Assembly: GCF_900446255.1 (NCBI RefSeq)
Contig: NZ_UIGI01000001.1
Coordinates: 4,366,763-4,430,762, forward strand
Source: Buttiauxella agrestis
Lineage (GTDB): Bacteria > Pseudomonadota > Gammaproteobacteria > Enterobacterales > Enterobacteriaceae
Reading direction: 5' to 3'
Length of the DNA stretch: 64,000 nucleotides
Shown here: piece by piece, positions 15,295-59,573 of the stretch
Layout of the letters: the number at the start of each line of letters is the position of its first letter
How positions within the stretch are numbered: the stretch's first letter is position 1
Notes under the pieces: generated by a model
What the model saw: only the letters and a program-made list of their open reading frames with translations
Databases searched by the model: none
What the model was told of the DNA's origin: nothing
Made by a program: the position numbers and the translations under genes

Positions 15295-15846
15295 TTATTG
15301 AAGTTTTCTATTCATCCAGGAAATAAAGAAAAATAGAGCAATAATACAAGCAATGAATATTGACACACGCCTAAACATCTCTTGTTCAAAGAACAGACAA
15401 ACTGGATATATCACTAACAGGATGGTTTTCAGGTATCTTATGCATTTAGAAAATCCAGATATTGATTGTTTAAATTGAAAATTACATATAAAAACAAACG
15501 AATATGCCAAAGCAGCCGCAAATATGAACAATAATGCCCGATACGGCAAACCCTCGTTAAAAATACCCCCCCCTAAAACTAGAGTTGAACATATTGCCAC
15601 TGCAATACCTATGGATTGCTTAGATATAACTGTCACGATGAAAATAAATGCAGCAAGAAACAAATATGAATAAAAAACAGAGAGATTCGTTGATATGTAA
15701 ATTTTATGAGGAACGAAAAAATGAGTATAAATTGTTGCAAGTGATATAGAAACGACTCTATAAACCATACATGCAAACAAACCAACCAGTAGTCGACCAT
15801 TTAATAAATCAATGTTTTTATTTTTTCCAGATTGCATATGTATCAT
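15295..15846 (-). CDS. Multi-pass membrane protein, candidate T6SS immunity protein
   Basis: I do not recognise this 183-aa protein by family. It is very hydrophobic, with about five or six predicted membrane segments, a short basic N-terminus (SGKNKN) and a basic tail (MNRKLQ). It overlaps the end of the preceding 264-aa gene by 29 bp (20 bp if the ATG at 15837 is used), and the pair follows vgrG on the same strand. Its DNA is strikingly AT-rich: 15661-15720 has 15 G/C of 60. Position, coupling and topology fit an inner-membrane immunity protein guarding against the adjacent putative effector. That role is inferred from context only. Confidence 0.55.
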   Translation of the reverse strand: MIHMQSGKNKNIDLLNGRLLVGLFACMVYRVVSISLATIYTHFFVPHKIYISTNLSVFYSYLFLAAFIFIVTVISKQSIGIAVAICSTLVLGGGIFNEGLPYRALLFIFAAALAYSFVFICNFQFKQSISGFSKCIRYLKTILLVIYPVCLFFEQEMFRRVSIFIACIIALFFFISWMNRKLQ

Positions 15847-16612
15847 ACTCTTCAGGTGTTATTGAATTACCTAATGTATCGTCTGGCGTAGCATTATCTT
15901 TTTCAACAACATCCACCGCAGGATAGGTACCATCGCCAGATTTAATGCCGTATGTGAACCTTTGACTTGCATATAAAGTCCCTCTTAGTACAAAGAAGTT
16001 ATCATAAGTATTTGTCCTGTCAGCTGCGTCAGAACGTCTCCCTGTCCCCCATATCATTCCCGTTTCAACAGTCGACGGTATATTTCTATTCATTCTGTAA
16101 GTATCGATTGAAAATGGTATTTGCCCTACAGCATCCGTCCAATATGGAATTTTATTTATCATGACGAGCAGATATCCACCCCCACCTACAGAATTACTCT
16201 TCCAATCTCCCTCACAATTTGGACGAAAAGCTAATGGGGTGCGATCTATAAGAGAGAATGTTACGATATCCGTCCATGTAAATAATTTGTAGGCATCCTT
16301 AGCATAATCCGCATCGTTAACGTACAATAACTCACGATAGTTATCAGCCAATGGTTCAAACCACTGATATTTAAATTTATCGTATAAGTCCTGAGCTGTC
16401 ACAACCTTAAAAGAGTCTGTATCTCCACCTCTCAGAACAAATAAAACATCAGCATTTTTCCTTGTGATAATTAAAACGTTAGGAATATCTACATCATGAG
16501 ATTCCTCCTCCGTTTCAGGTGTGGTGTTTCCTTTAAAGCCTAACTCCGTCTTTTCATCTTTTGTTATTATCAAATAAGGTTGACCATCAATGTCCAGATC
16601 TATTTTTTCCAT
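15818..16612 (-). CDS. Unrecognised protein, candidate VgrG-linked T6SS effector
   Basis: This 264-aa soluble protein has no signal peptide and no family I recognise. I start it at MEKIDLDIDG (16612), preceded by GAGAG about ten bases upstream. An in-frame ATG at 16642 lies inside vgrG. Visible features are a beta-rich N-terminus (IDLDIDGQPYLIITKDE), a Gly-rich VGGGGYLL stretch in the middle and many aromatic residues. I see no catalytic signature such as GxSxG or HxxxD. It begins 12 bp after the vgrG stop and overlaps the membrane-protein gene. This vgrG-effector-immunity order is standard, but the function is inferred. Confidence 0.55.
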   Translation of the reverse strand: MEKIDLDIDGQPYLIITKDEKTELGFKGNTTPETEEESHDVDIPNVLIITRKNADVLFVLRGGDTDSFKVVTAQDLYDKFKYQWFEPLADNYRELLYVNDADYAKDAYKLFTWTDIVTFSLIDRTPLAFRPNCEGDWKSNSVGGGGYLLVMINKIPYWTDAVGQIPFSIDTYRMNRNIPSTVETGMIWGTGRRSDAADRTNTYDNFFVLRGTLYASQRFTYGIKSGDGTYPAVDVVEKDNATPDDTLGNSITPEEYDTYAIWKK

Positions 16613-16623
16613 TTTTTTATCTC

Positions 16624-18852
16624 TCAACTCACAAATACCCAATATTCCGACTGACTATCTTTTTTGCCGATATATCCACTTACTCCAGACCCGGAAAGAA
16701 TTTCCTCCCCCTCAGTTGTTTCTACCCTGTAAGTAATGTCTGATGAAAAACGAAGTTTTCGGTCGAAATACTGTGTCAATAATTCCCCAGGTAAGGAACC
16801 GTCCCCGGCTATCTTAACTGGCGTCCCCGGACTTCCCCCACCGTTAAGATTGATTTTCAGCCCGGTGATGTCCACGCCGCCGGGGTGGATGACCACAAAC
16901 GAACTCCCCACCCGCAGCGTGATTTTGATTTGACTCTGCAGCACGATATCACCCTGCGCATCCACACCCAGCGCCCCCGCCACTTTCTGCGCCAGGTCGC
17001 CTTTCACTTCCAGGCTGTGATTGCCTTTCACCAGGCTGATATGGTCTTTTGTCGTGTTGTGTTCCTGATTGCCTTTTACCGTCACTTTGCGGTCGCGTTC
17101 CACATACAGATTGTCATCGCGCCCGCTGTTTACCGTCCGGTCGCGGGTGACTTTCAGCGTCTGGTCATTGCGTACGGTGATGCTGCGGTCGTGCGCCACG
17201 GTGATGTTCTGGTCGTGCCCGGTGGCGTTCTCCTGGCCGACTTTTACCGTCTGCCCCAGCCCGACTGTGACCTGCTGGTTATGGCCGATGGTTTCGCTGT
17301 GGTCGACTTTCACATTCGTATCGCGGTTATTGAGCACCACCGTTTTCATGTCCTTCTGGGCATGCATCGACAGCAGTTCCTGGCCGGTCTGGTCGTCAAA
17401 CATTAATTCGTTGTATCCATTACCCTTATACGTCTGCGAGCGTATCGCCATCTGGGTTTTGGTCCCTGGCAGGTCGCCCGGTGCGCGGTTGGCAGCGTGG
17501 TATGTGCGCCCGGTGATAATCGGCTGGTCCGGGTCGCCGTTCAGGAAATCGACAATCACTTCCTGGCCGACGCGCGGGATGGCGATGTTGCCGAATCCGG
17601 TGCCCGCCCACGCCTGAGAGACGCGCACCCAGCACGAGCTTTCCTCGTTGCTTTTGTTATACCGGTCCCAGGCAAATTTCACCGTCACGCGCCCGTGTTC
17701 GTCGCAGTAGATTTCTTCCCCGGCAGGACCGGTGACAATGCCGATTTGCGGGCCATCCACCAGCGGTTTCGGTAACGGCGCAGGGCGCCAGGTCTGGGTG
17801 GCCGGGATAACATGAAAGCGGTTGGTGAGCGTGGTACCCTGGCCGGCGCTGCCGATATGCGCCTGCGGCTGGCTGCCGGTCATCTCGCACGACACCACCT
17901 GCCACGGGCTGTTTAAATCTTCACGCGGGTGGTCGGTGAGGGTGAACCAGCGCCCCGGCTGTAACTGCGGGCAATTACTGGTACCGCTGGCAAAATCGAC
18001 GTTATTGCGCCAGCCGTCCATCTGATATTTGGCAAAATCGGCCCCGTGCTGTTCATCCTTAAAACGCCCCGGATAGTCAAAAATCTCATAATCCGGGCGC
18101 TGATATGACAGGTCCGCCCCTTCTTCCTGGTACTGCGCCTGCCAGCCGGGGGCGGTGAAGGTGTAATCCTTTGTGGTGACTTTCGCCGGGCGGATTTGCG
18201 CGCTGCGGCGAAAGGTGTTGATGCAGTACGTGGACGATTCAGAGGCGGCATTCGGGTTATACGGAAAAGCCCCGAGGCCGCGCAGGTTGCAGCGGTCATC
18301 GGTGAAGGTCAGCTTCTGGTCTCTGTCGTCGAGGTATTCATCCTCGAAAAAGAATATCCCTTCTTCCGCGGCGAGGCGGGCAATAAAATCGTAATCCGAT
18401 TCCATAAACTGAACACAGAATTCGCGCGGCGGATGCGAGCGGCGGAACAGCGCGTCATGCGTGCGGATACGCATTTCTTTCAGCAACTTTGCGAAGATGT
18501 ACTGGATGTCGTAATTCTGAAAGCTGCGGCAGTTCTGCCGCTGTGAGCTGCGCCAGAACTCCGGGCGCACCGTCATCGAGTAAAGCGTCTGGTGCTTGCC
18601 GCTGTCACCCTGTTCGCAGAAGGTGACGATACCGCGCACCCGGCGCTTAATGACCTCGCCCTGCCAGATGGTGAGCAGCGCGTATTCATCGAGAATGGCT
18701 TTAAAGCCAATCGCCGGGTCGTTACAGGACACGGTGATATCCAGAGCGAATAGCGAAGAGAGGGATTGTTTGAGCTTAAAACCCACCACCGCAAAAGTGT
18801 CCGCCGGAGTACGCCCGGCGGTGAAGGTAAAGCGGGTGCCGTCTGAAGCCAT
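16624..18852 (-). CDS. vgrG: Type VI secretion tip protein VgrG
   Basis: This 742-aa spike protein of the type VI secretion system has a gp27-like N-terminal half, a gp5 OB-fold region with the hallmark WVRVSQAWAG and PRVGQEVIVDFLNGDPDQP near residues 410-450, and a triple-stranded beta-helix of repeated short T/V/D units (about 510-660). After GGGSPG (residue 676) a 66-residue extension contains YFDRKLRFS and TYRVETTEGEEIL. It resembles the small beta-sandwich (transthyretin-like) tails on cargo-binding VgrGs. No PAAR, Hcp or T6SS structural gene is present in the window, so this is an orphan vgrG island. Confidence 0.93.
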   Translation of the reverse strand: MASDGTRFTFTAGRTPADTFAVVGFKLKQSLSSLFALDITVSCNDPAIGFKAILDEYALLTIWQGEVIKRRVRGIVTFCEQGDSGKHQTLYSMTVRPEFWRSSQRQNCRSFQNYDIQYIFAKLLKEMRIRTHDALFRRSHPPREFCVQFMESDYDFIARLAAEEGIFFFEDEYLDDRDQKLTFTDDRCNLRGLGAFPYNPNAASESSTYCINTFRRSAQIRPAKVTTKDYTFTAPGWQAQYQEEGADLSYQRPDYEIFDYPGRFKDEQHGADFAKYQMDGWRNNVDFASGTSNCPQLQPGRWFTLTDHPREDLNSPWQVVSCEMTGSQPQAHIGSAGQGTTLTNRFHVIPATQTWRPAPLPKPLVDGPQIGIVTGPAGEEIYCDEHGRVTVKFAWDRYNKSNEESSCWVRVSQAWAGTGFGNIAIPRVGQEVIVDFLNGDPDQPIITGRTYHAANRAPGDLPGTKTQMAIRSQTYKGNGYNELMFDDQTGQELLSMHAQKDMKTVVLNNRDTNVKVDHSETIGHNQQVTVGLGQTVKVGQENATGHDQNITVAHDRSITVRNDQTLKVTRDRTVNSGRDDNLYVERDRKVTVKGNQEHNTTKDHISLVKGNHSLEVKGDLAQKVAGALGVDAQGDIVLQSQIKITLRVGSSFVVIHPGGVDITGLKINLNGGGSPGTPVKIAGDGSLPGELLTQYFDRKLRFSSDITYRVETTEGEEILSGSGVSGYIGKKDSQSEYWVFVS

Positions 18853-19156: not shown

Positions 19157-19179
19157 GATATGTTATATGGTAACAATTA
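19157..19179. promoter_or_regulatory. Zur-like operator upstream of the SPFH/P-type ATPase operon
   Basis: The core TGTTATATGGTAACA (19161-19175) is a palindrome (TGTTA-N5-TAACA). Aligned to the gamma-proteobacterial Zur signal, 17 of 22 informative positions match over 19157-19179. It ends 43 bp before the ATG and overlaps a possible -10 (TATGTT, 19159-19164, with TTTACG at 19135-19140, spacing 18). That placement would suit repression by zinc-loaded Zur. The assignment is by eye. Confidence 0.55.
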
Positions 19180-19222
19180 ACCTCAATGATGCAGACACCT
19201 TGCGTCTGAAAGTAATCATTCC

Positions 19223-21190
19223 ATGCAGCCCTCCCCATTATCTGAACCGACGGAACATTCGCCGTTAGTCGCTCAGGCTCGATATTCTTTGGCGTCTTCG
19301 CAGGCCATGCTGGCCGCAAGAGTCGTTTTCGGGCTAGGTGCGACGATTTTCCTTATGCTGGTTGTGGCGCTGATCACTCATATTTTCGAGTCATCTTCCC
19401 GCTGGACAGCGTTGTTAACCAGCAATGCCGCGGTGCTGGTTTTGTTAGCCGTCGCGTTTTATAACGCACAGCGAATTTGCCAGTGGCGTGCTGATATCTT
19501 CGCTCCACCGTTGAAAATTGAAGAAGCTCTCACGGAAACTGAAGCCTCGCCGACCATTTATCAGCGGCTTGGCTCGCTCATTCCGGTTAACGTCAAACGC
19601 ATCAACGCGGCGCTCAAAAGCGATGGAATTAGCCTTGCCTTGATGGCGGCACTCGTGTTGTTTGTCACGCTTTCAGGCTGGGGCGCTCATTATGTCGGGC
19701 TGGATGAAGGCACACTGCGCTGGGCGGCGGTCGGCATAATTGCGGCGGCGATGTTTGCCACTCTGGTTGCCGAACGTCATCTGGCGGCGACTGCCAGCGA
19801 AGCCTGGCCGGAAGCGAAATTCATTGCGCCGATATTGCGCCTGGCGCTTGCGGTGCAATTCCTCTCTTTACCGCCGTTGGTTTTCCCATCCGTCACGCTA
19901 TCACTGCTGATTAACCTGCCCGCGATTCTGGTGTTACTGGTGGCGATTGAGTTCCTGCTGCGCGGTCTTTTTTCGCTGTTTATGCCGCCAAAAGCGGAAG
20001 ACGCAGAACCGGAATATCTGGCAAAAAGCCAACTGGCGGCACAGCTCGTCTGGCCGCCGCGCCCGCTGCTGTTTCTCCAGCACGAAATCCATCAGCACTT
20101 TGGCATTGATTTGCGCCAGCTTTGGGCGTTCATCGTCCTGAAACGTGCTTTTGTGCCGGTTGTTGCGGTGATGATGCTTTGCGGCTGGCTGTTGACGGGT
20201 ATCCAGCAAGTTTCTACCACCCAGCGCGGCATTTACGAACGTTTTGGTAAACCTGTTGTGGTCTTACCTGCCGGACTGCATTACGGGCTGCCGTGGCCTT
20301 TCGGGCAGGTGATGCTGACTGAAAACGGCCAGGTGCATGAACTGGCTGCCGGAGAAGAACCGGATGCCGCATCCGAACCGCTGGCAAGTGCGGAAGGTAA
20401 CGCGCCGCAAAGTGCGGACCGCCTGTGGGATACCGTTCATAGCTTTGATAAAGCGCAGATTATCGCCTGCCAAAGTGGCGACCAGCAAAGCCTGCAAATC
20501 ATTAATAGCGATGTGCGTTTTATGTGGCGCATTGGCTTAACCGATAACGCAGCGCTGGCGGCGACTTACCGCAGCAACAATCTGCCAGAGCTTATCCGCA
20601 GCACCGCCAATCAAGTGCTGGTGCATCAGTTTTCCTCGCTCACGCTTGAACAGTTACTTGGCGAGCAACGCAATGCCTTAGCCAGCCAGATTAACCGGTC
20701 GGTGCAACAAAGGCTCGACGAGTTACACAGCGGCGTGGAGTTGCTTTCAACGGTGGTCGAAGCCATTCACCCGCCAGCGGGTGCCGCCGACGCGTTTCAT
20801 GGCGTGCAGGCCGCGCAAATTTCAGCGCAGGCACTGGTATCGCGCGAGCGTGGGCACGCGGCGGAACTCGCGGCCAGCGCGCAAACCACTGCGACAACCC
20901 GCCAGAACCAGGCACAAATGAACGCCACCGATGTCACCAGCAAGGCGCAGGCAACTGCCGTGCGTTTTGCCGCGCAAAAGCAGGCGGTCGCGCAATCTGG
21001 CCAGGTTTTTGTTGATGAGTTGTGGTTCAGCCAGTTGCATCAAACCTTAGGCCATAGCCCATTGATGATTATCGACAGTCGTATTGGCGCAGGTTCGCCA
21101 CCCACCATCGACCTGCGTGAATTTCCTTCTTTGAACGAAGCAGCACGGCGTGACGCGCCTTCCAAACCGACACAGGAGTCTTCCCGTTGA
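19223..21190 (+). CDS. Polytopic SPFH-domain (HflK-like) membrane protein
   Basis: This 655-aa protein has about six predicted membrane segments in its N-terminal 250 residues (near 32-54, 62-80, 136-152, 166-184, 202-218, 223-246) and another at about 310-328. An SPFH/band-7 domain beginning QQVSTTQRGIYERFGKP follows, then an Ala/Gln-rich coiled region (about 545-600) as in HflK. Ordinary HflK has only one membrane segment, so the polytopic half is unusual. The ATG at 19223 has a weak ribosome binding site. It is first of four overlapping genes. The role may be a membrane scaffold or modulator for the co-encoded metal ATPase (inference). Confidence 0.8.
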   Translation: MQPSPLSEPTEHSPLVAQARYSLASSQAMLAARVVFGLGATIFLMLVVALITHIFESSSRWTALLTSNAAVLVLLAVAFYNAQRICQWRADIFAPPLKIEEALTETEASPTIYQRLGSLIPVNVKRINAALKSDGISLALMAALVLFVTLSGWGAHYVGLDEGTLRWAAVGIIAAAMFATLVAERHLAATASEAWPEAKFIAPILRLALAVQFLSLPPLVFPSVTLSLLINLPAILVLLVAIEFLLRGLFSLFMPPKAEDAEPEYLAKSQLAAQLVWPPRPLLFLQHEIHQHFGIDLRQLWAFIVLKRAFVPVVAVMMLCGWLLTGIQQVSTTQRGIYERFGKPVVVLPAGLHYGLPWPFGQVMLTENGQVHELAAGEEPDAASEPLASAEGNAPQSADRLWDTVHSFDKAQIIACQSGDQQSLQIINSDVRFMWRIGLTDNAALAATYRSNNLPELIRSTANQVLVHQFSSLTLEQLLGEQRNALASQINRSVQQRLDELHSGVELLSTVVEAIHPPAGAADAFHGVQAAQISAQALVSRERGHAAELAASAQTTATTRQNQAQMNATDVTSKAQATAVRFAAQKQAVAQSGQVFVDELWFSQLHQTLGHSPLMIIDSRIGAGSPPTIDLREFPSLNEAARRDAPSKPTQESSR

Positions 21191-22179
21191 GCCATTCACA
21201 TCAGCATGGTTGCAGTCACGGTTGCCACCACAGCCACCACAACCATCACTCTGAAGCGCCTAAATCCGGAGTCTGGAAGCGTATTGCAGGCGCCGGTTTA
21301 CTCGTGCTGATCCTCGTCGCTGCCGCCAGTCTGGTTCAGGTTCGCTCCGGCGAATCGCTGATCATTACCCGTTTTGGCAACCCGGTGCGCGTGCTGCTCA
21401 ATCCAGGGCTTGCGTGGCGGCTACCAGCGCCTTTTGAAACGGCTACCACCGTGGATTTGCGGATGCGCACCACCTCAAGCGGTTTACAGGATGTCGGCAC
21501 GCGTGATGGGCTGCGGATCATCGTTCAGTCTTATGCGGTGTGGCAGGTCGATAACACGCCGGAACATGTGCAGCGTTTTATGCGTGCGGTACAAAATCAG
21601 CCTGACGAAGCCGCACGGCAGATCCGGGCTTATTTGGGTTCGGCGCTGGAAACCACCACCAGTGGCTTTACCCTCTCGCAGCTGGTGAATACCGACAGCA
21701 AACAGGTACAGCTCGGTCAGTTTGAATCGCATTTACAGGCGCAAATCAGCCAGCCGCTGCTGGAAAGTTACGGCATTCGTCTGGTGCAGGTGGGAACCGA
21801 ACGTCTGACGCTCCCTGCGGTCACGCTCAACGCCACGGTCGATCGGATGCGGGCCGAACGTGAAACCATTGCCACAGAACGCACCGCCGAAGGCAAACGT
21901 GCTGCCGCAGAAATCCGCTCGGCGGCCGAGCGCGACGCACGTATTGTCGAAGCGCAGGCGCAAGTTCAGGCCGCCGATATCGAAGCGCAATCTCAGGTGC
22001 AGGCGGCGGAAATTTATGGCAAGGCTTACGCCAGTTCGCCACAGCTTTACAGTCTGTTACGCCAGCTTGATGCCCTTAGCGGCGTGGTGAATTCCAGCAC
22101 TCGCCTGGTGTTGCGCACCGATGCGGCCCCCTTCCGCCTGTTGGTAGAAGGGCCGAAGCTGGATAAAACCCATGAGTGA
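21187..22179 (+). CDS. SPFH-domain (HflC-like) protein with His/Cys-rich N-terminal tail
   Basis: This 330-aa protein has one membrane segment (about residues 34-51), a band-7 domain starting VRSGESLIITRFGNPV, and an Ala/Glu/Gln-rich coiled coil (about 220-280), the layout of HflC. Residues 3-21 contain ten His and two Cys (H3, H5, H7, C9, H11, C13, H14, H15, H17, H18, H20, H21), which suggests metal binding. It starts at a TTG overlapping the upstream stop (TTGA), with AGGAG 8 nt before it. A short basic stretch (PKSGVWKR) separates the tail from the membrane segment. Confidence 0.82.
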   Translation: MSHSHQHGCSHGCHHSHHNHHSEAPKSGVWKRIAGAGLLVLILVAAASLVQVRSGESLIITRFGNPVRVLLNPGLAWRLPAPFETATTVDLRMRTTSSGLQDVGTRDGLRIIVQSYAVWQVDNTPEHVQRFMRAVQNQPDEAARQIRAYLGSALETTTSGFTLSQLVNTDSKQVQLGQFESHLQAQISQPLLESYGIRLVQVGTERLTLPAVTLNATVDRMRAERETIATERTAEGKRAAAEIRSAAERDARIVEAQAQVQAADIEAQSQVQAAEIYGKAYASSPQLYSLLRQLDALSGVVNSSTRLVLRTDAAPFRLLVEGPKLDKTHE

Positions 22180-23224
22180 GCATCAGCCGAAATCATCCGC
22201 AGGCCCGTGGACGCAATCCATACGCCTCGCCTTTTACGCGCTGCTCGGGCTGACGCTGCTGGCCGCCGCAAGCTGGCTGTTCTCCAACATCCGCCAAATC
22301 CCTGCTGACAGCCGCGCCGTGGTGCTTCATTTTGGCGCCCAGCAACGCATTGCCGAACCCGGTTTATTACTGAGCTGGCCAAAGCCGATTGATGACGTGG
22401 TGATGGTGCCTGCACCAGACCGCGTTATTGAACATCGCGTTAGCGCACTTTTACGTTCGCCCAACGCGCTGAATGCGGACATGCGCGACGATAACAGCAG
22501 CGACGCGCTGGCAGGGTCCGGCTACTTGCTCACCGGCGATGCGGGTGTGGTACAGCTGGATATCAGCGTGTTTTATCGAGTCAACAGCCCGATGGATTAT
22601 GTGTTGCAGGGTGAACACGTTATTCCCGCGCTCGATCGCCTGGTTGAACGTGCCGCCGTTGCGGTGTGTGCCGCGCGCGATCTCGACACGATTCTGGTCG
22701 CCCGTCCGGAAATGATCAGCAATGATATGAACGTCGCGAAGCTGCGCGAACGCCTGCGTGCGGATGTGCAGCATAACGTCGAGCAGAATCTGCAACGCCT
22801 GGCGCAATCGGGCAGCTCGCTGGGAATTACCCTTGAGCGTGTCACCGTCCAGTCGACGCTGCCTGCCACGACCGTCACCGCCTTTAACGCCGTGCTCACC
22901 GCCAGCCAGAAAGCATCACAGGCCATCGCCACCGCGAATACCGATGCTTCTTTAATCCGGCAAAAATCGACCCAACTTGCCGATCAGACGCGCCAGACAG
23001 CCCAGGCACAAGCGCAAGAAAAAGTCGCAAAAGCCCAGTCCGATACGGCGATGGTCGCTCGGTTAGCCAACACCCCACACGATCCAGACCTGCTGCCACG
23101 CGTTTACCGCGAACGCATTGCGGCGATTCTGGCGCAGGCCGAATCGGTGATCACCGTTTCACCGCAGGATGATGCGAATTTGATTCTGCAAGCCGCCGGG
23201 CAAAAGGAACCTTCTCCAAAATGA
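22172..23224 (+). CDS. SPFH-domain (HflK-like) protein
   Basis: This 350-aa protein has one N-terminal membrane segment (about residues 19-38) and a band-7 domain starting RQIPADSRAVVLHFGAQQRI. The C-terminal coiled coil is Ala/Gln-rich (about 250-300). It overlaps the HflC-like gene by 8 bp and the ATPase gene by 4 bp, so all are translationally coupled. By analogy with HflK-HflC, the three SPFH proteins probably form a hetero-oligomeric membrane ring. Confidence 0.8.
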   Translation: MSEHQPKSSAGPWTQSIRLAFYALLGLTLLAAASWLFSNIRQIPADSRAVVLHFGAQQRIAEPGLLLSWPKPIDDVVMVPAPDRVIEHRVSALLRSPNALNADMRDDNSSDALAGSGYLLTGDAGVVQLDISVFYRVNSPMDYVLQGEHVIPALDRLVERAAVAVCAARDLDTILVARPEMISNDMNVAKLRERLRADVQHNVEQNLQRLAQSGSSLGITLERVTVQSTLPATTVTAFNAVLTASQKASQAIATANTDASLIRQKSTQLADQTRQTAQAQAQEKVAKAQSDTAMVARLANTPHDPDLLPRVYRERIAAILAQAESVITVSPQDDANLILQAAGQKEPSPK

Positions 23225-25119
23225 GTACCGATTCTATTAATCCTGGCGGCGCGTTAAGCCATCAGGAGCAGCGCCAGATTACCCGTCAACTGATTCTGGC
23301 GCTGGTCGCCAGCGGCACGTTAATTCTCGGTCTGCTGTGGCGCGGCCTGGCACCGGAACAAGTCGCCGTGGCGGATATTCTGTTGGGTGTGGCCTCGCTG
23401 ATGGTCGGCATTCCGGTGCTGCGCCACGCCTTTTACAGCTTGCGCTACCCGAGCCTGCACGGCATTACCGATCAACTGGTGGCGCTGGCGCTGATTGGCT
23501 CCTGGGCGACGGGTGATTTGCTCACCGCCGCCTTGCTTCCGTTGATCATGACCGTTGGCCACATTCTTGAAGAACGCAGCGTGATTGGCTCGCAAGAGGC
23601 GATTGAAGCGCTCGGCAAGCTCACCCGCAGCCGGGCGCGACGTTTTGATGTAGACGGCAATCTGCACGATATCGACAACCACGAACTGGTGGCGGGCGAC
23701 ATCGTGGAAGTGCGGGCGGGCGACCGTTTACCCGCTGACGGTCGCGTGCTGGAGGGCCAGGCGAGCCTCGACACCGCGCCCATTACCGGAGAGTCCGTTC
23801 CGCTGGAAGTGAAACCCGGCATGAACGTTTATGGTGGCGCGATTAATCTCGACGGACGGCTGCGTATTGAAGTCACGCGCACGGGAGAAACCTCAACGCT
23901 TGGCCGCGTTATCGCGCTGATGCAAAGTGCCGAACAGGCCAGCCCGCCGATTACCCGCTTGCTGGAACGCCACGCCGCACGCTACTTGCTGCTGGTTTTA
24001 CTGATTGCCGCCAGCACGTGGTTTTTGACGCAGAATAACCAGGCGATGTTAGCCGTGCTGGTTGCCGCCTGCCCGTGTGCGCTGGTGCTTTCCGCACCAG
24101 CAACGTCGATTGCCGGGCTAACCGTCGCCGCCCGTCACGGGATTTTGATTCGCGGTGCGGCGTTCCTCGAAGAACTTGCCGAACTCAATGCGGTGATTAT
24201 CGACAAAACCGGCACGCTCACGCACGGCAAACTGCAATTGCATGAATTGCTTGCTGAACCCGGCGAATCACCGCAAGCGCTGTCCGCTCTGGCGGCGAGT
24301 CTCGGCGCGACCAGTAACCACCCGGTCAGCCGGGCGCTGGTCAATATCGCCCCGCAAAGTGCGTGGCCCGCGCTTGAAAATGTTCATGAACATCAAGGTT
24401 TGGGCATTTCTGCCACCACAGCGGCGGGCGAGGCGTATCTTGGCCGACATGAATTGTTAAAAACTCAGGTTGCTGATTTACCAGAAGAACCGCCACACGA
24501 CGGGCCAATTGTCGGCCTGGTGCTGGCGGGTCGTTTCCGTGGCTGGATTTTACTGGCCGACAGCCTACGCGACGAAGCGGCAGAGGCAATGACCGAACTG
24601 CGCGACCTCGGGCTGAATCAGCAATTATTACTGACCGGCGACCGTGAAGCTGTGGCGCAACGCATCGCCAAAAAAATCGGCATCAACAACGTCATCGCAG
24701 GTGCACTTCCCGCCGATAAACTGCACCAGGTCAGCGTGCAAATCGACAACGGCTTCCGACCAATGGTGGTCGGCGATGGCATCAACGACTCGCTGGCCAT
24801 CAAAGCAGGCGTGGTCGGTGTCGCGATGGGCGCAGGCGGTTCGGATATCGCCATGGCTTCCGCCGATATCGTACTGATTGGCGGGGATTTACGCCGCCTC
24901 GGCACCTGCGTGCGCTTAAGCCGCCGCTGCCGCCGTACGCTGCAAGTCAACGTGATGATTGGCCTGGGCTGGACGCTGGTGATTGTCGCCGCTGCGGCTT
25001 TCGGCTGGCTCGGCGCATCTGGCGCAGTGATTGCCGCCATTTTGCATAACCTGAGCACGCTGCTGGTACTGGGGAATGCCGGGCGTATATTACGGTTTGA
25101 AGAAAAGTTGAGCGGGTGA
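23221..25119 (+). CDS. P1B-type heavy-metal translocating ATPase
   Basis: This 632-aa inner-membrane pump has the complete P-type core: TGES (189-192), the transport-site CPC (284-286), DKTGT with the phosphorylated Asp (328-332), the HP motif SNHPVS (367-368) and GDGIND (518-523). No N-terminal HMA domain or CxxC is present. In the last membrane helices LHNLST (608-613) replaces the DxG of ZntA-type zinc pumps and the Met/Ser signature of CopA. Metal specificity is therefore open. The Zur-like operator upstream suggests zinc, and the HN-type motif resembles Mn/Zn/Co-class pumps. It overlaps the upstream SPFH gene by 4 bp (ATGA). Confidence 0.92.
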   Translation: MSTDSINPGGALSHQEQRQITRQLILALVASGTLILGLLWRGLAPEQVAVADILLGVASLMVGIPVLRHAFYSLRYPSLHGITDQLVALALIGSWATGDLLTAALLPLIMTVGHILEERSVIGSQEAIEALGKLTRSRARRFDVDGNLHDIDNHELVAGDIVEVRAGDRLPADGRVLEGQASLDTAPITGESVPLEVKPGMNVYGGAINLDGRLRIEVTRTGETSTLGRVIALMQSAEQASPPITRLLERHAARYLLLVLLIAASTWFLTQNNQAMLAVLVAACPCALVLSAPATSIAGLTVAARHGILIRGAAFLEELAELNAVIIDKTGTLTHGKLQLHELLAEPGESPQALSALAASLGATSNHPVSRALVNIAPQSAWPALENVHEHQGLGISATTAAGEAYLGRHELLKTQVADLPEEPPHDGPIVGLVLAGRFRGWILLADSLRDEAAEAMTELRDLGLNQQLLLTGDREAVAQRIAKKIGINNVIAGALPADKLHQVSVQIDNGFRPMVVGDGINDSLAIKAGVVGVAMGAGGSDIAMASADIVLIGGDLRRLGTCVRLSRRCRRTLQVNVMIGLGWTLVIVAAAAFGWLGASGAVIAAILHNLSTLLVLGNAGRILRFEEKLSG

Positions 25120-25126
25120 TGGACTA

Positions 25127-25282
25127 ATGCAAAACCAAGACGTACGCGAAGAACAAGCAGAATCCAGATTGCAGCAGTTACGCGACTTGCTGGCTGAAGG
25201 CATCAGCAGCGGCGCTCCGCAAATTTGGGAACAGGATAGTTTTCTACAACGGATGAAAGAAAAACATCAAAACAAGGGATAA
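25127..25282 (+). CDS. 51-aa ORF resembling the C-terminal half of ParD-type antitoxins
   Basis: This ORF begins 7 bp after the ATPase stop. The translation contains RLQQLRDLLAEGISSGAP and ends DSFLQRMKEKHQNKG, like the toxin-binding tail of ParD antitoxins (xLRxxLxEGxxSG...). The ribbon-helix-helix DNA-binding half is missing, and an in-frame stop (25109-25111) prevents an upstream extension. No ParE toxin follows. It may be a remnant or a small co-translated protein of the metal operon. Confidence 0.45.
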   Translation: MQNQDVREEQAESRLQQLRDLLAEGISSGAPQIWEQDSFLQRMKEKHQNKG

Positions 25283-25293
25283 AAACCGCAGTT

Positions 25294-25369
25294 GTAGGGC
25301 GGATAAGTGAAGCGTCATCCGCCGTTTTCACCCATGCTGGCGGGGGCGCTGCGCTTGCCCGCCCTACGA
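25294..25369. repeat. Approximately 80-bp direct repeat, copy 1
   Basis: The element begins GTTGTAGGGCGGATAAG, includes AGCGTCATCCGCCGTTTTCA, and ends GCGCTTGCCCGCCCTACGAA. A second copy in the same orientation lies at 26063-26145. The two ends pair (GTAGGGCGG / CCGCCCTAC), so each copy is a composite REP-like hairpin element. Confidence 0.85.
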
Positions 25370-25375
25370 AAACCG

Positions 25376-26062: not shown

Positions 26063-26145
26063 GTTGTAGGATGGATTAGCAGTTAGCGTCATCCGCCGTT
26101 TTCACCAATGCTGGCGAGGGCGCTGCGCTTGCCCGCCCTACGAAA
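26063..26145. repeat. Approximately 80-bp direct repeat, copy 2
   Basis: This copy has the same orientation as 25294-25369 and is nearly identical to it from AGCGTCATCCGCCGTTTTCA to GCCCGCCCTACGAA. It diverges more in the first 25 bp. It closes the small divergent gene pair and marks the right edge of the accessory block before ytfL. Confidence 0.85.
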
Positions 26146-57303: not shown

Positions 57304-58308
57304 TTAACGTGTGCTATTCGCAGGTGTTTTCATGTAGCGGAAGAAATCGCTATCCGGGCTTAACACCATCACGTCCTGACCACTACTGAAGCTTGCTTCA
57401 TAAGCACGCAGGCTACGAATGAATGCATAGAAGTCTGGATCCTGGCTGAATGCATCAGCAAACAGTTTGGCAGCTTCTGCATCACCTTCACCACGGCTAA
57501 TACGGCCCTGACGCTCGGCTTCTGCCAGAGTACGAGTCACTTCGTAGTCGGCGGTAGCACGCAGCTTCTCAGCTTCTTCCTGACCTTGTGAACGGTGACG
57601 ACGAGCAACAGCTTCACGTTCGGCACGCATACGGTTGTAGATGGCTTCAGAAACCTCAGCAGGCAGGTTGATCTGCTTGATACGCACATCGACCACTTCG
57701 ATACCCAGCGCCGCCATACTGTTCGGGTTAACCACTGGTACTTTACCTTTGGTTTCCGCAGTGACACGCGCAGCAGCAGAGGCAATTGCATCATCCGCAG
57801 CAGGTGTAGCCACTTCATCGTCAGTACCCGCGGTACCTGAGTTCAGCGCATCACGCACATCCAGAGTCAGACGGCCACGAGAATCGGTCACGATGTCTTT
57901 CACATCAAGACGACCAATTTCAGAACGCAGACGGTCACTGAATTTACGTTTTAACAGCACTTCTGCCTGAGAAACGTCACCACCGCCTGTTGCCAGGTAG
58001 TAGCGGCTGAAATCACTGATACGCCATTTGATATAGGAATCGACGATCAGGTCTTTCTTCTCTTTGGTCACAAAGCGATCGGCCTGGTTATCCATGGTCT
58101 GAATACGCGCATCAAGCGTTTTAACCGACTCGATAAACGGTACTTTGAAATGCAGACCTGGTTCGTAGACCACCGGCTTGTTTTCATCATCACGCAACAC
58201 TTTACCGAAGCGTAACGTAATCCCGCGCTCGCCTTCCTGTACCACGAAGACCGAGGTAAACAGCACAACCAGCACGATGATAATTAAAGCAATGACTGAC
58301 TTACGCAT
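57304..58308 (-). CDS. hflC: HflC, SPFH-domain modulator of FtsH
   Basis: This 334-aa inner-membrane protein forms the HflKC cage around the FtsH protease and limits its access to substrates. It has an N-terminal membrane segment (VIALIIIVLVVLFTSVFVV), a band-7 domain and a C-terminal region DPDFYAFIRSLRAYEASF. It follows hflK by 2 bp. It is the canonical counterpart of the accessory SPFH proteins at 21187-23224. Confidence 0.98.
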   Translation of the reverse strand: MRKSVIALIIIVLVVLFTSVFVVQEGERGITLRFGKVLRDDENKPVVYEPGLHFKVPFIESVKTLDARIQTMDNQADRFVTKEKKDLIVDSYIKWRISDFSRYYLATGGGDVSQAEVLLKRKFSDRLRSEIGRLDVKDIVTDSRGRLTLDVRDALNSGTAGTDDEVATPAADDAIASAAARVTAETKGKVPVVNPNSMAALGIEVVDVRIKQINLPAEVSEAIYNRMRAEREAVARRHRSQGQEEAEKLRATADYEVTRTLAEAERQGRISRGEGDAEAAKLFADAFSQDPDFYAFIRSLRAYEASFSSGQDVMVLSPDSDFFRYMKTPANSTR

Positions 58309-58310
58309 CG

Positions 58311-59573
58311 TTATTCACTCCCTACGCGCTGGTTATCAGTGCGCTGCGCGTTCACGCGGCGCTGATCCATGATATCGCCCCGGCTTGACGAGGACTGTGT
58401 GCTGGCGCTACCGCTGCTTGAACTTGATGCAGGTGGCAGACGCAACAAGTTGTTCGCCCCTGTGTTATCAGTCTTTGCCGCTGGCTGTGAGCCACCTTTG
58501 AGCATCTGATCCAGAGGCAGAACCATCAGGTTGCCACCTTTGTCGTTAACCAGAACTTTACGGGTATGGCTAAGCACTTTTTCCATGGTTTCGATATACA
58601 GACGCTCCCGGGTAATTTCCGGTGCAGCTTTGTATTCCGGCAACATTTTGGCGAAGCGAGCCACTTCACCCTGCGCTTCTAACACGGTCTGTGTTTTATA
58701 AGCACGCGCTTCTTCAAGAATACGCTGCGCCTGACCGTTAGCACGCGGCTGAACTTCGTTGGTATACGCTTCTGCTTCACGGATATATTGCTGTTCGTTT
58801 TCACGCGCGGAAATCGCATCATCAAACGCAGCCTTCACCTCTTCCGGCGGACGAGCAGCCTGGAAGTTGACGTCCAGCAAGGTGATACCCATGTTGTAAG
58901 GACGAATGGTTTCTTCCAGTTCGCGCTGCGTATCATTACGAATAATGGTACGACCCTCGGTGAGGATTTTATCCATGGTGTATTTACCAATAACACCACG
59001 CAGTGCGCTGTCGGTTGCCTGACGCAGGCTATCGTCCGCGCTGGTTACGCTAAACAGATAACGACGCGGATCGGTAACACGGTACTGCACGTTCATTTCA
59101 ACGCGAACCACGTTCTCGTCGGAAGTCAGCATCACACCTGACGCAGCCAATTCACGTACCGCTTCCACGTTTACCGCTCGGACGCTATCAATGAATGTCG
59201 GTTTCCAGTTCAGGCCCGGCTCAACCAAATGGCTGAATTGACCAAAACGCGTTACTACACCACGTTCAGCTTCTTTGATGGTATAGAACCCGGTTGCAGC
59301 CCAAATAACGACAGCGACGGCGGCAACGATACCGACCATACGACCACCGATGTGCGGACGCGGAAGCTGTGAAGAACCGCCACCGGAACCACTGCCACCA
59401 CTTTTACCGCCGCCCAGGCCACCCAGTTTTTTGCTTAATTTACGGAAGATATCATCCAGATCAGGTGGACCCTGATCCCGCCCTCCTTTGTTACCCCCAG
59501 AGTCGCCGCCAGGTTTGCTGCTTCCCCACGGGTCGCGGTCCTGTCCGTTATTACCGGGCTGATTCCACGCCAT
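58311..59573 (-). CDS. hflK: HflK, SPFH-domain modulator of FtsH
   Basis: This 420-aa partner of HflC has a Gly/Pro-rich cytoplasmic N-terminus (MAWNQPGNNGQDRDPWG...), a membrane segment at about residues 80-97, a band-7 domain beginning IKEAERGVVTRFGQF and a low-complexity Ser-rich C-terminus. Length is typical (E. coli 419). Confidence 0.98.
   Translation of the reverse strand: MAWNQPGNNGQDRDPWGSSKPGGDSGGNKGGRDQGPPDLDDIFRKLSKKLGGLGGGKSGGSGSGGGSSQLPRPHIGGRMVGIVAAVAVVIWAATGFYTIKEAERGVVTRFGQFSHLVEPGLNWKPTFIDSVRAVNVEAVRELAASGVMLTSDENVVRVEMNVQYRVTDPRRYLFSVTSADDSLRQATDSALRGVIGKYTMDKILTEGRTIIRNDTQRELEETIRPYNMGITLLDVNFQAARPPEEVKAAFDDAISARENEQQYIREAEAYTNEVQPRANGQAQRILEEARAYKTQTVLEAQGEVARFAKMLPEYKAAPEITRERLYIETMEKVLSHTRKVLVNDKGGNLMVLPLDQMLKGGSQPAAKTDNTGANNLLRLPPASSSSSGSASTQSSSSRGDIMDQRRVNAQRTDNQRVGSE

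What the first reader, a model, noticed from the sequence alone, without database searches (positions are those of the whole stretch)
19157..25282. SPFH/P1B-ATPase operon: three stomatin-like proteins coupled to a metal pump
Three different SPFH (HflK/HflC-like) genes and a P1B metal ATPase overlap end to start (TTGA, 8-bp and ATGA junctions), so they are very likely made in fixed ratio as one complex. The first SPFH protein has an extra polytopic half, and the second has a His/Cys-rich tail. SPFH rings are known to cage the FtsH protease. A ring that scaffolds or gates a metal pump would be a different use. I know of no characterised function for this combination.
Basis: partly seen in the sequence, partly recalled or inferred. 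Interest (0 to 1): 0.8.

Follow-up and report, generated by a model that had tools for sequence, protein, structure and literature searches.

The report
Zinc-starvation SPFH ring and pump operon
Three ring-type membrane proteins and a metal pump are encoded as one tightly linked gene set behind a zinc-starvation switch, so they probably work together to bring zinc into the cell rather than to throw metal out.

Summary
In detail: window 19223-25119 carries SPFH1, SPFH2, SPFH3 and a P1B ATPase, overlapping by 4, 8 and 4 bp. The His/Cys-rich segment is SPFH2's N-terminus, not its tail. Nearest genus: Buttiauxella. The genes stay together: same order in 80 of 80 genome loci and 5 of 5 plasmid loci, all chosen by SPFH1. 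In surveys by each gene alone, SPFH1 and the ATPase occur in the same 12 of 397 Pseudomonadota genomes. It looks like the enterobacterial form of the P. aeruginosa PA2439-PA2435 (hmtA) cluster. A Zur-type (zinc-uptake repressor) box precedes SPFH1 in 13 of 13 enterobacterial and 55 of 68 Pseudomonas loci, 0 of 5 plasmid loci. So the operon most likely serves zinc (perhaps copper) uptake, not metal resistance. SPFH2 groups with HflC, SPFH1 and SPFH3 with HflK: a paralogous HflKC-type set. SPFH1's polytopic half is predicted to resemble CDF zinc transporters in fold, without detectable sequence kinship. That the SPFH proteins hold the pump is inferred, untested. Pieces are known in P. aeruginosa; my searches listed no paper proposing an SPFH scaffold for HmtA.

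The parts
19160..19176 (.). Zur-type box ATGTTATATGGTAACAA (core TGTTATATGGTAACA), 46 bp before the SPFH1 start codon
   Evidence: 2 mismatches to ATGTTATANNATAACAT (alone not beyond chance there); fits the P. aeruginosa Zur consensus GWWAYWNNNTWHCR (consensus from PMC10393844) and resembles the E. coli Zur box (PMC4219657); TGTTATA and TAACA invariant in 13 of 13 enterobacterial sequences whose flanks diverge
19223..21190 (+). SPFH1: N-terminal polytopic domain (about residues 20-255), a further predicted TM helix (about 297-325, low confidence) and an HflK-like SPFH/coil region (329-620)
   Evidence: Pfam Band_7 residues 329-546; AF2 helices; structure matches to CDF transporters (about 21-258) and SPFH proteins (about 420-600)
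21187..22179 (+). SPFH2: HflC-like SPFH protein with a His/Cys-rich N-terminus
   Evidence: Pfam Band_7; groups with HflC in the tree, split supported 100/99
21187..21264 (+). His/Cys-rich N-terminal segment of SPFH2 (residues 1-26, 10 His and 2 Cys), probably cytosolic
   Evidence: at least 6 His+Cys in 84 of 85 sequences examined; topology inferred from HflC
22172..23224 (+). SPFH3: HflK-like SPFH protein
   Evidence: Pfam Band_7; TIGR01933 94.9 bits, below cut-off; groups with HflK and SPFH1
23221..25119 (+). HmtA-type P1B ATPase: CPC (284-286), DKTGTLT (328-334), HNLST (609-613), no N-terminal metal-binding domain detected
   Evidence: NCBIfam TIGR01525 510 bits; Pfam finds only E1-E2_ATPase and Hydrolase; motifs; alignment with ZntA structure 4umv

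Best explanation
A Zur-repressed zinc (possibly zinc/copper) uptake module. When zinc runs low Zur leaves the box at 19160-19176 and one transcript is made; overlapping genes help fix subunit ratios. The HmtA-type ATPase moves metal from periplasm to cytosol. SPFH2 (HflC-like) with SPFH1 and SPFH3 (HflK-like) assemble, as HflK/HflC do, into a ring or cage with SPFH domains on the periplasmic side; its client is the ATPase instead of FtsH. SPFH1's membrane domain docks on or next to the pump, and SPFH2's His-rich N-terminus on the cytosolic side buffers or receives the incoming metal, standing in for the metal-binding domain that the pump lacks in this species. Shown: gene unit, co-occurrence, Zur-type box, paralogy to HflK/C, conserved His-rich segment. 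Reported by others for P. aeruginosa: Zur binding to the first promoter, induction in zinc depletion, import by HmtA. Inferred: ring formation, contact with the pump, role of the tail, Zur control in this organism.
For: Gene unit: same order in 85 of 85 loci; SPFH1 and ATPase in the same 12 of 397 genomes, 2.0-2.8 kb apart on one contig in 12 of 12, and the same 1 of 249. Box: GTTATANNNTAAC near the SPFH1 start in 13 of 13 enterobacterial and 55 of 68 Pseudomonas loci, against 0 of 745 and 0 of 3882 background windows. In G001 a 17-mer search found 9 places with up to 2 mismatches; the three with 0-1 precede zinT, this operon and an AztA-like ABC transporter, and one with 2 lies between znuA and znuC. 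In Paraburkholderia the operon lies near a Fur-family regulator, ZigA, a zinc ABC transporter, a TonB receptor and ExbBD. Literature passages: Zur shifts the PA2439 promoter (PMC8531726); PA2434, PA2435 and PA2437-39 up in a znuA mutant (PMC4542158); PA2437-39 marked Zur regulon and up with N-acetylcysteine (PMC9431628). SPFH types. His-rich segment.
Against: I saw no physical evidence that SPFH proteins touch the ATPase. hmtA mRNA stayed low and was not repressed by zinc in PMC8531726, PMC10393844 excepts hmtA from Zur's targets, and hmtA is not named in PMC9431628 although the trio is. In PMC11761036 the rises are only partly significant. 13 of 68 Pseudomonas and 5 of 5 plasmid loci (alpha, beta, Klebsiella) lack the strict box; five of nine G001 box places had no zinc gene that I recognised. 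Deleting the SPFH trio in PA14 gave slight effects; I saw no zinc-starvation assay (PMC13086221). The import direction rests on overexpression data seen only through reviews. Orthology with PA2435 was inferred from gene order; sequences were not compared.
Confidence: 0.55

Rival explanations
1. The trio modulates FtsH under zinc starvation (a starvation-specific HflKC), and the ATPase is only co-regulated. FtsH is a zinc protease, so an alternative HflKC set could tune proteolysis when zinc is scarce.
For: The trio is clearly paralogous to HflK/HflC; authors of PMC9431628 and PMC11761036 read PA2437-39 this way.
Against: Linkage to one ATPase type in 12 of the 12 genomes that have either; each SPFH group sits on a long stem apart from enterobacterial HflK/C and below the equivalog cut-offs; canonical hflK/hflC are kept in the same window (57304-59573).
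Confidence: 0.2
2. General membrane scaffold: the SPFH proteins only stabilise or cluster the ATPase, as PacL1 does for CtpC in mycobacteria, with no closed cage and no gating.
For: PacL1-CtpC platforms need a scaffold with Glu/Ala repeats plus a metal-binding end, encoded with a P1B ATPase (PMC9374683 abstract and passages); SPFH2 likewise joins a scaffold domain and a His-rich end.
Against: Three distinct SPFH subunits, one C-type and two K-type, are more than clustering seems to need; HflK/C relatives form closed cages (known for PDB 7wi3 and 7vhp, which were matched).
Confidence: 0.2
3. Metal efflux or resistance operon.
For: P1B ATPases are mostly exporters; the protein passes the 'cadmium family' TIGR01512 cut-off, and the best solved relatives are a cadmium-type ATPase and ZntA.
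Against: Zur-type box and, in one locus, zinc-uptake neighbours; ZntA's K693 and D714 align with T585 and H609 (ZntA numbering recalled); HmtA reported as importer.
Confidence: 0.05

Closest known systems
P. aeruginosa PA2439-PA2434 cluster with hmtA (PA2435); PaFlo5-7 = PA14_33070/33080/33110
   Same: HflK family, HflC, HflC family, then P1B ATPase; Zur-linked promoter; raised on zinc depletion (passages of PMC4542158, PMC8531726, PMC11761036, PMC9431628)
   Different: An extra gene lies between SPFH3 and ATPase in P. citronellolis L098 and in G120, at the place of PA2436; in the window SPFH3 and ATPase overlap
HflK-HflC-FtsH complex
   Same: C-type plus K-type SPFH proteins made from one operon
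   Different: Two K-type genes, one with an added membrane domain; partner gene is a P1B ATPase, not FtsH; below HflK/HflC equivalog cut-offs
PacL1-CtpC metal efflux platform (Mycobacterium)
   Same: Membrane scaffold with a metal-binding end encoded beside a P1B ATPase
   Different: Efflux and zinc resistance; PacL1 is a small protein with one TM domain; flotillin not required (PMC9374683, passages)
Stomatin-aquaporin 1 and QmcA-YbbJ complexes (PDB 9zd2, 8z5g)
   Same: SPFH assemblies with a membrane-protein partner (entry titles seen)
   Different: Other partners, other SPFH types
CDF zinc transporters (YiiP, ZnT)
   Different: No sequence similarity detected; by eye no transport-site acidic/His set; fused to SPFH

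Membership tests
SPFH/Band_7 superfamily | Pfam PF01145 over gathering score | tested here: met
   90.6, 105.5, 66.4 bits against 23.6
HflK / HflC (FtsH modulators) | NCBIfam equivalog cut-offs TIGR01933 / TIGR01932 | tested here: not met
   SPFH1 62.9 and SPFH3 94.9 against 159.4; SPFH2 100.5 against 134.4
HflK / HflC (FtsH modulators) | Phylogenetic place inside HflK or HflC clade | tested here: not met
   Five separate groups; one split puts SPFH2 with HflC and SPFH1, SPFH3 with HflK; midpoint root, long branches flagged, only 6 enterobacterial HflK and 6 HflC included
HflK / HflC (FtsH modulators) | Binding to FtsH | not testable with these tools
   no interaction data
HmtA-type P1B ATPase | P1B signature, CPC and DKTGTLT motifs | tested here: met
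   TIGR01525 510 bits; CPC and DKTGTLT in 86 of 86, HNxST in 82 of 86 rows (two rows gapped there, two read HNVGT)
HmtA-type P1B ATPase | Gene order SPFH-SPFH-SPFH-ATPase as in PA2439-PA2435 | tested here: met
   P. aeruginosa order from PMC4542158 and PMC9431628 passages
HmtA-type P1B ATPase | Sequence orthology to PA2435 | not tested
   no record named P. aeruginosa was among the 80 loci listed
HmtA-type P1B ATPase | Import of Zn/Cu | not testable with these tools
   reported for HmtA in reviews; primary paper not held
ZntA (P1B-2 Zn/Cd/Pb exporter) | NCBIfam NF033775 / NF008262 cut-offs | tested here: not met
   287.1 against 1240 and 321.5 against 1005 bits
ZntA (P1B-2 Zn/Cd/Pb exporter) | Lys and Asp of the membrane metal site (K693, D714; numbers recalled) | tested here: not met
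   aligned residues are T585 and H609
Zur regulon | Zur-type box in the promoter region | tested here: met
   by pattern in the window alone not beyond chance
Zur regulon | Zur binding and zinc-dependent repression in this organism | not testable with these tools
   EMSA reported only for the PA2439 promoter (PMC8531726)
CDF transporters | Sequence match to PF01545 or a CDF profile | tested here: not met
   no Pfam hit at E 0.1; the operon's contig in G001 not among PF01545 hits; hhalign probability 0.2% with a shallow 10-row CDF profile
CDF transporters | CDF membrane-domain fold | tested here: inconclusive

The most novel reading that the evidence does not exclude
The three SPFH proteins build a closed hetero-oligomeric cage dedicated to one P-type ATPase, making a private zinc-import compartment: SPFH1's CDF-like domains stand inside the ring beside the pump, SPFH2's His-rich ends hang into the cytosol as a zinc acceptor, and the cage controls which metal reaches or leaves the pump. 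It would be, as far as I know, the first SPFH cage whose job is vectorial metal uptake, with a transporter-fold domain built into the cage wall.
Probability: 0.2. Interest if true: 0.85.

Novelty: new variant of a known kind. Interest (0 to 1): 0.62.

Why it matters
It gives a testable client and condition to orphan SPFH proteins: PaFlo5-7 of P. aeruginosa were deleted with only slight effects, and the passages I saw show no zinc-starvation assay. The strict gene linkage says the trio belongs with HmtA rather than with FtsH, and turns 'what do extra SPFH rings do?' into a zinc-limitation experiment. It may also explain how an importing P1B ATPase, an unusual direction for the family, is made to work.

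Tried and rejected
Defence-system reading: PADLOC gave 0 families for the four proteins. E. coli: no match in 20,395 records in 'near' mode, the only mode tried. CDF homology by sequence: Pfam, a genome search with PF01545 and hhalign gave nothing; I keep the fold likeness only as a suggestion. The two AF2 models are weak overall (mean pLDDT 63.5 and 62.4), so I used only the N-half of SPFH1 and did not use the ATPase model. Conserved His residues of SPFH1 (H353, H372, H406, H468, H516, H526) could be a metal site, but much of that region is below pLDDT 50, so I did not argue from it. His tail on the ATPase instead of SPFH2 in L001: one case only, and several other ATPases also have His-rich N-termini, so not used as evidence. 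Promoter and terminator scans were no richer than shuffles. In the window alone the box is not beyond chance: 17-mer with up to 3 mismatches, 2 found, 1.0 expected; loose consensus, 5 found, 4.6 expected. The argument rests on position and conservation.

Limits of counts: the 85 loci were chosen by SPFH1, and most are Pseudomonas, so they are not independent. The contig scan found 390 relatives and kept 80. Of 18 plasmid records with a match I opened 5. In some searches only 3 to 5 candidates per genome were scored, and some genomes occur in both surveys. SPFH2 counts leave out L026, whose gene is split. In one search the stretch searched runs from 250 bp before to 100 bp inside the longest ORF, because starts are uncertain. 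L171 was dropped from the CDF profile as wrongly trimmed. The genes near the G001 box places were partly named by profile (six proteins) and otherwise only looked at.
Full report
WHAT IS THERE. Four genes on the + strand overlap end to start: SPFH1 19223-21190, SPFH2 21187-22179, SPFH3 22172-23224 and a P1B ATPase 23221-25119. The non-ATG start of SPFH2 is kept: TTG in four other Buttiauxella loci and RIT714, GTG in Cedecea (six other loci looked at). SPFH3 and ATPase ORFs overlap in 78 of 80 loci. All three SPFH proteins pass Pfam's Band_7 cut-off and the ATPase passes the heavy-metal P-type ATPase cut-offs. The His/Cys-rich stretch of SPFH2 is N-terminal. The operon is richer in G+C (58.5%) than the window (51.9%). 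The canonical hflK and hflC are also in the window, at 57304-59573, so this is an additional set.

WHOSE IT IS. The nearest named records are Buttiauxella (SPFH1 97% identical in L026, B. agrestis). Among 60 related genomes, full-length SPFH1 is in 12 of 12 of the genus and in none of the other 48; 21 of those 48 have weak hits that cover only the SPFH end at 16-28% identity and look like HflK. It also occurs in Cedecea davisae, Enterobacteriaceae RIT714 and many Pseudomonas, and on plasmids of Klebsiella aerogenes, Rhizobium, Burkholderia and Paraburkholderia. In Buttiauxella it sits between msrA and the ytfL-like gene: both lie in 9 of the 10 Buttiauxella loci; in L033, which begins near a contig end, neither was found, though about 4 kb downstream is held. 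Neither was found in the Cedecea and RIT714 loci. A patchy spread across classes, plasmid copies and higher G+C suggest horizontal transfer (inference).

ONE UNIT. In 80 of 80 kept loci of genome contigs and 5 of 5 plasmid loci, the order SPFH1-SPFH2-SPFH3-ATPase is the same (in L026 SPFH2 is split by a stop, and L056 and L075 end inside the ATPase). These loci were selected by SPFH1. The test free of that choice searched 397 Pseudomonadota genomes twice: the SPFH1 profile at E<=1e-30 found 12; the ATPase P0004 at E<=1e-115 found the same 12, all with E below 1e-250. The two lie 2.04-2.77 kb apart on one contig in 12 of 12. In the order of G164, both searches found the same 1 of 249. So in these samples the ATPase type was not seen without SPFH1, nor the reverse. 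The genomes are related, so I give no probability.

WHAT TYPE OF SPFH. SPFH2 matches HflC best, SPFH1 and SPFH3 HflK best, all below the equivalog cut-offs; the same holds against solved structures. A tree of 48 sequences has one split with SPFH2 and HflC on one side and SPFH1, SPFH3 and HflK on the other (100/99); each of the five groups is one side of a branch with supports of 97 or more. The root is only the midpoint and long branches are flagged. So this is one C-type and two K-type subunits: a paralogous HflKC-like set with one K-type protein enlarged.

THE HIS-RICH SEGMENT. Of 85 SPFH2 sequences (window plus 84 loci), 84 have six or more His+Cys before the TM helix; only L001 does not (83 of 85 by His alone). 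Letters vary while composition stays, as in metal-buffering tails. By HflC topology this end is cytosolic (inference). The ATPase in the window has 1 His/Cys in its first 19 residues and no metal-binding domain that Pfam detects; over 86 rows the ATPase N-terminus has 0 to 18.

THE ATPASE. CPC and DKTGTLT are in 86 of 86 rows, HNxST in 82; 2 rows are gapped there and 2 read HNVGT. Against ZntA (4umv) the membrane-site Lys and Asp align with T585 and H609. It is far below the ZntA equivalog cut-offs but over the 'cadmium family' TIGR01512 cut-off. So it is P1B, but not a ZntA-type exporter by these marks.

REGULATION. A palindrome ATGTTATATGGTAACAA lies at 19160-19176. It fits the P. aeruginosa Zur consensus quoted in PMC10393844 and resembles the E. 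coli box quoted in PMC4219657. Across 13 enterobacterial sequences (window plus 12 loci) the half-sites TGTTATA and TAACA are invariant while the surroundings diverge. The strict form GTTATANNNTAAC is near the SPFH1 start in 13 of 13 enterobacterial, 55 of 68 Pseudomonas and 0 of 5 plasmid loci, against 0 of 745, 0 of 3882 and 0 of 284 background windows; the loose consensus in 13, 56 and 1, against 10, 49 and 4. In G001 the 17-mer with up to 2 mismatches has 14 strand-hits at 9 places, none for the reversed control; the three places with 0-1 mismatch precede zinT, this operon and an AztA-like ABC transporter (below that family's cut-off), and one with 2 lies between znuA and znuC; at the other five I recognised no zinc gene. 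In G012 there were 11 strand-hits and the control gave 4, so weak sites there mean little. In the window alone the patterns are not beyond chance.

NEIGHBOURS. On the Paraburkholderia sprentiae plasmid the operon follows a Fur-family regulator, ZigA, a second GTP-binding protein, a zinc ABC transporter and a PCu(A)C copper chaperone, with a TonB receptor and ExbBD beyond. I looked at the annotation of three other plasmid neighbourhoods and saw no such island there; the fifth record had none.

LITERATURE (passages only, unless said). PMC4542158: PA2434, PA2435, PA2437-39 up in a znuA mutant, weak Zur site. PMC8531726: Zur shifts the PA2439 promoter; hmtA mRNA stays low. PMC11761036 (preprint): HmtA and PA2437-39 higher in zinc depletion, partly significant. 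PMC9431628: PA2437 = PA14_33110, PA2438 = PA14_33080, PA2439 = PA14_33070, marked Zur regulon, described as FtsH modulators; hmtA not named. PMC13086221 (abstract, section 3.1, passages): these are PaFlo5-7, one operon; the triple deletion gave about 20% less biofilm and some attenuation in wax-moth larvae; the word ATPase was not found in its text. PMC8456098 and PMC10393844 (one section read): reviews of HmtA as importer. PMC9374683 (abstract, passages): PacL1-CtpC platforms. PMC2636767: term search only; no ATPase or metal in it. Lewinson 2009 was not held. Paper searches listed no paper that proposes an SPFH scaffold for HmtA; only open-licence PMC papers were searched and only the top rows shown.

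VERDICT. The unit and its link to zinc starvation are well supported (about 0.8). That the SPFH proteins act directly on the pump follows from tight linkage and precedent and is untested (about 0.5). The set is an enterobacterial member of the hmtA cluster; the mechanism, if right, is a new variant of SPFH-client complexes.

Noticed in passing
window 25127-25282 (+): 51-residue ORF matching the C-terminal half of ParD antitoxin (Pfam PF03693, 24.8 bits, profile positions 41-78 of 81); looks like a remnant.
   Followed up: partly
window 15295-18852 (-); L029 and L032 upstream of the operon: A VgrG-like gene (named by eye) plus two ORFs without Pfam match lie between msrA and the operon here; msrA is 95-223 bp from SPFH1 in 7 Buttiauxella loci but about 6.2 kb away in L029 and L032: a possible insertion hot spot.
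   Followed up: partly
window 25311-25371 and 26085-26145: 61-nt direct repeat, 97% identical, REP-like, downstream of the operon.
   Followed up: partly
L026 9965-10948: SPFH2 of B. agrestis ATCC 33320 (NZ_JMPI01000011) is split by an in-frame stop; intact copies exist in other Buttiauxella.
   Followed up: no
L026 and L032: Two records titled B. agrestis ATCC 33320 differ strongly (SPFH1 97% and 80% identical to the window); L032 is marked UNVERIFIED_ORG.
   Followed up: no
L098 5386-5991; L160 13142-13591: Extra gene for a 150-168 residue protein with a signal-like N-terminus between SPFH3 and ATPase, where PA2436 lies; the L160 protein has no Pfam match.
   Followed up: partly
L001 (K. aerogenes conjugative plasmid): The one SPFH2 of 85 without a His-rich N-terminus; its ATPase begins with a His-rich stretch instead. 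No strict Zur-type box.
   Followed up: partly
L141, L144: A second metal-type ABC transporter of Buttiauxella (AztA-like, below cut-off) has a Zur-type box upstream.
   Followed up: partly
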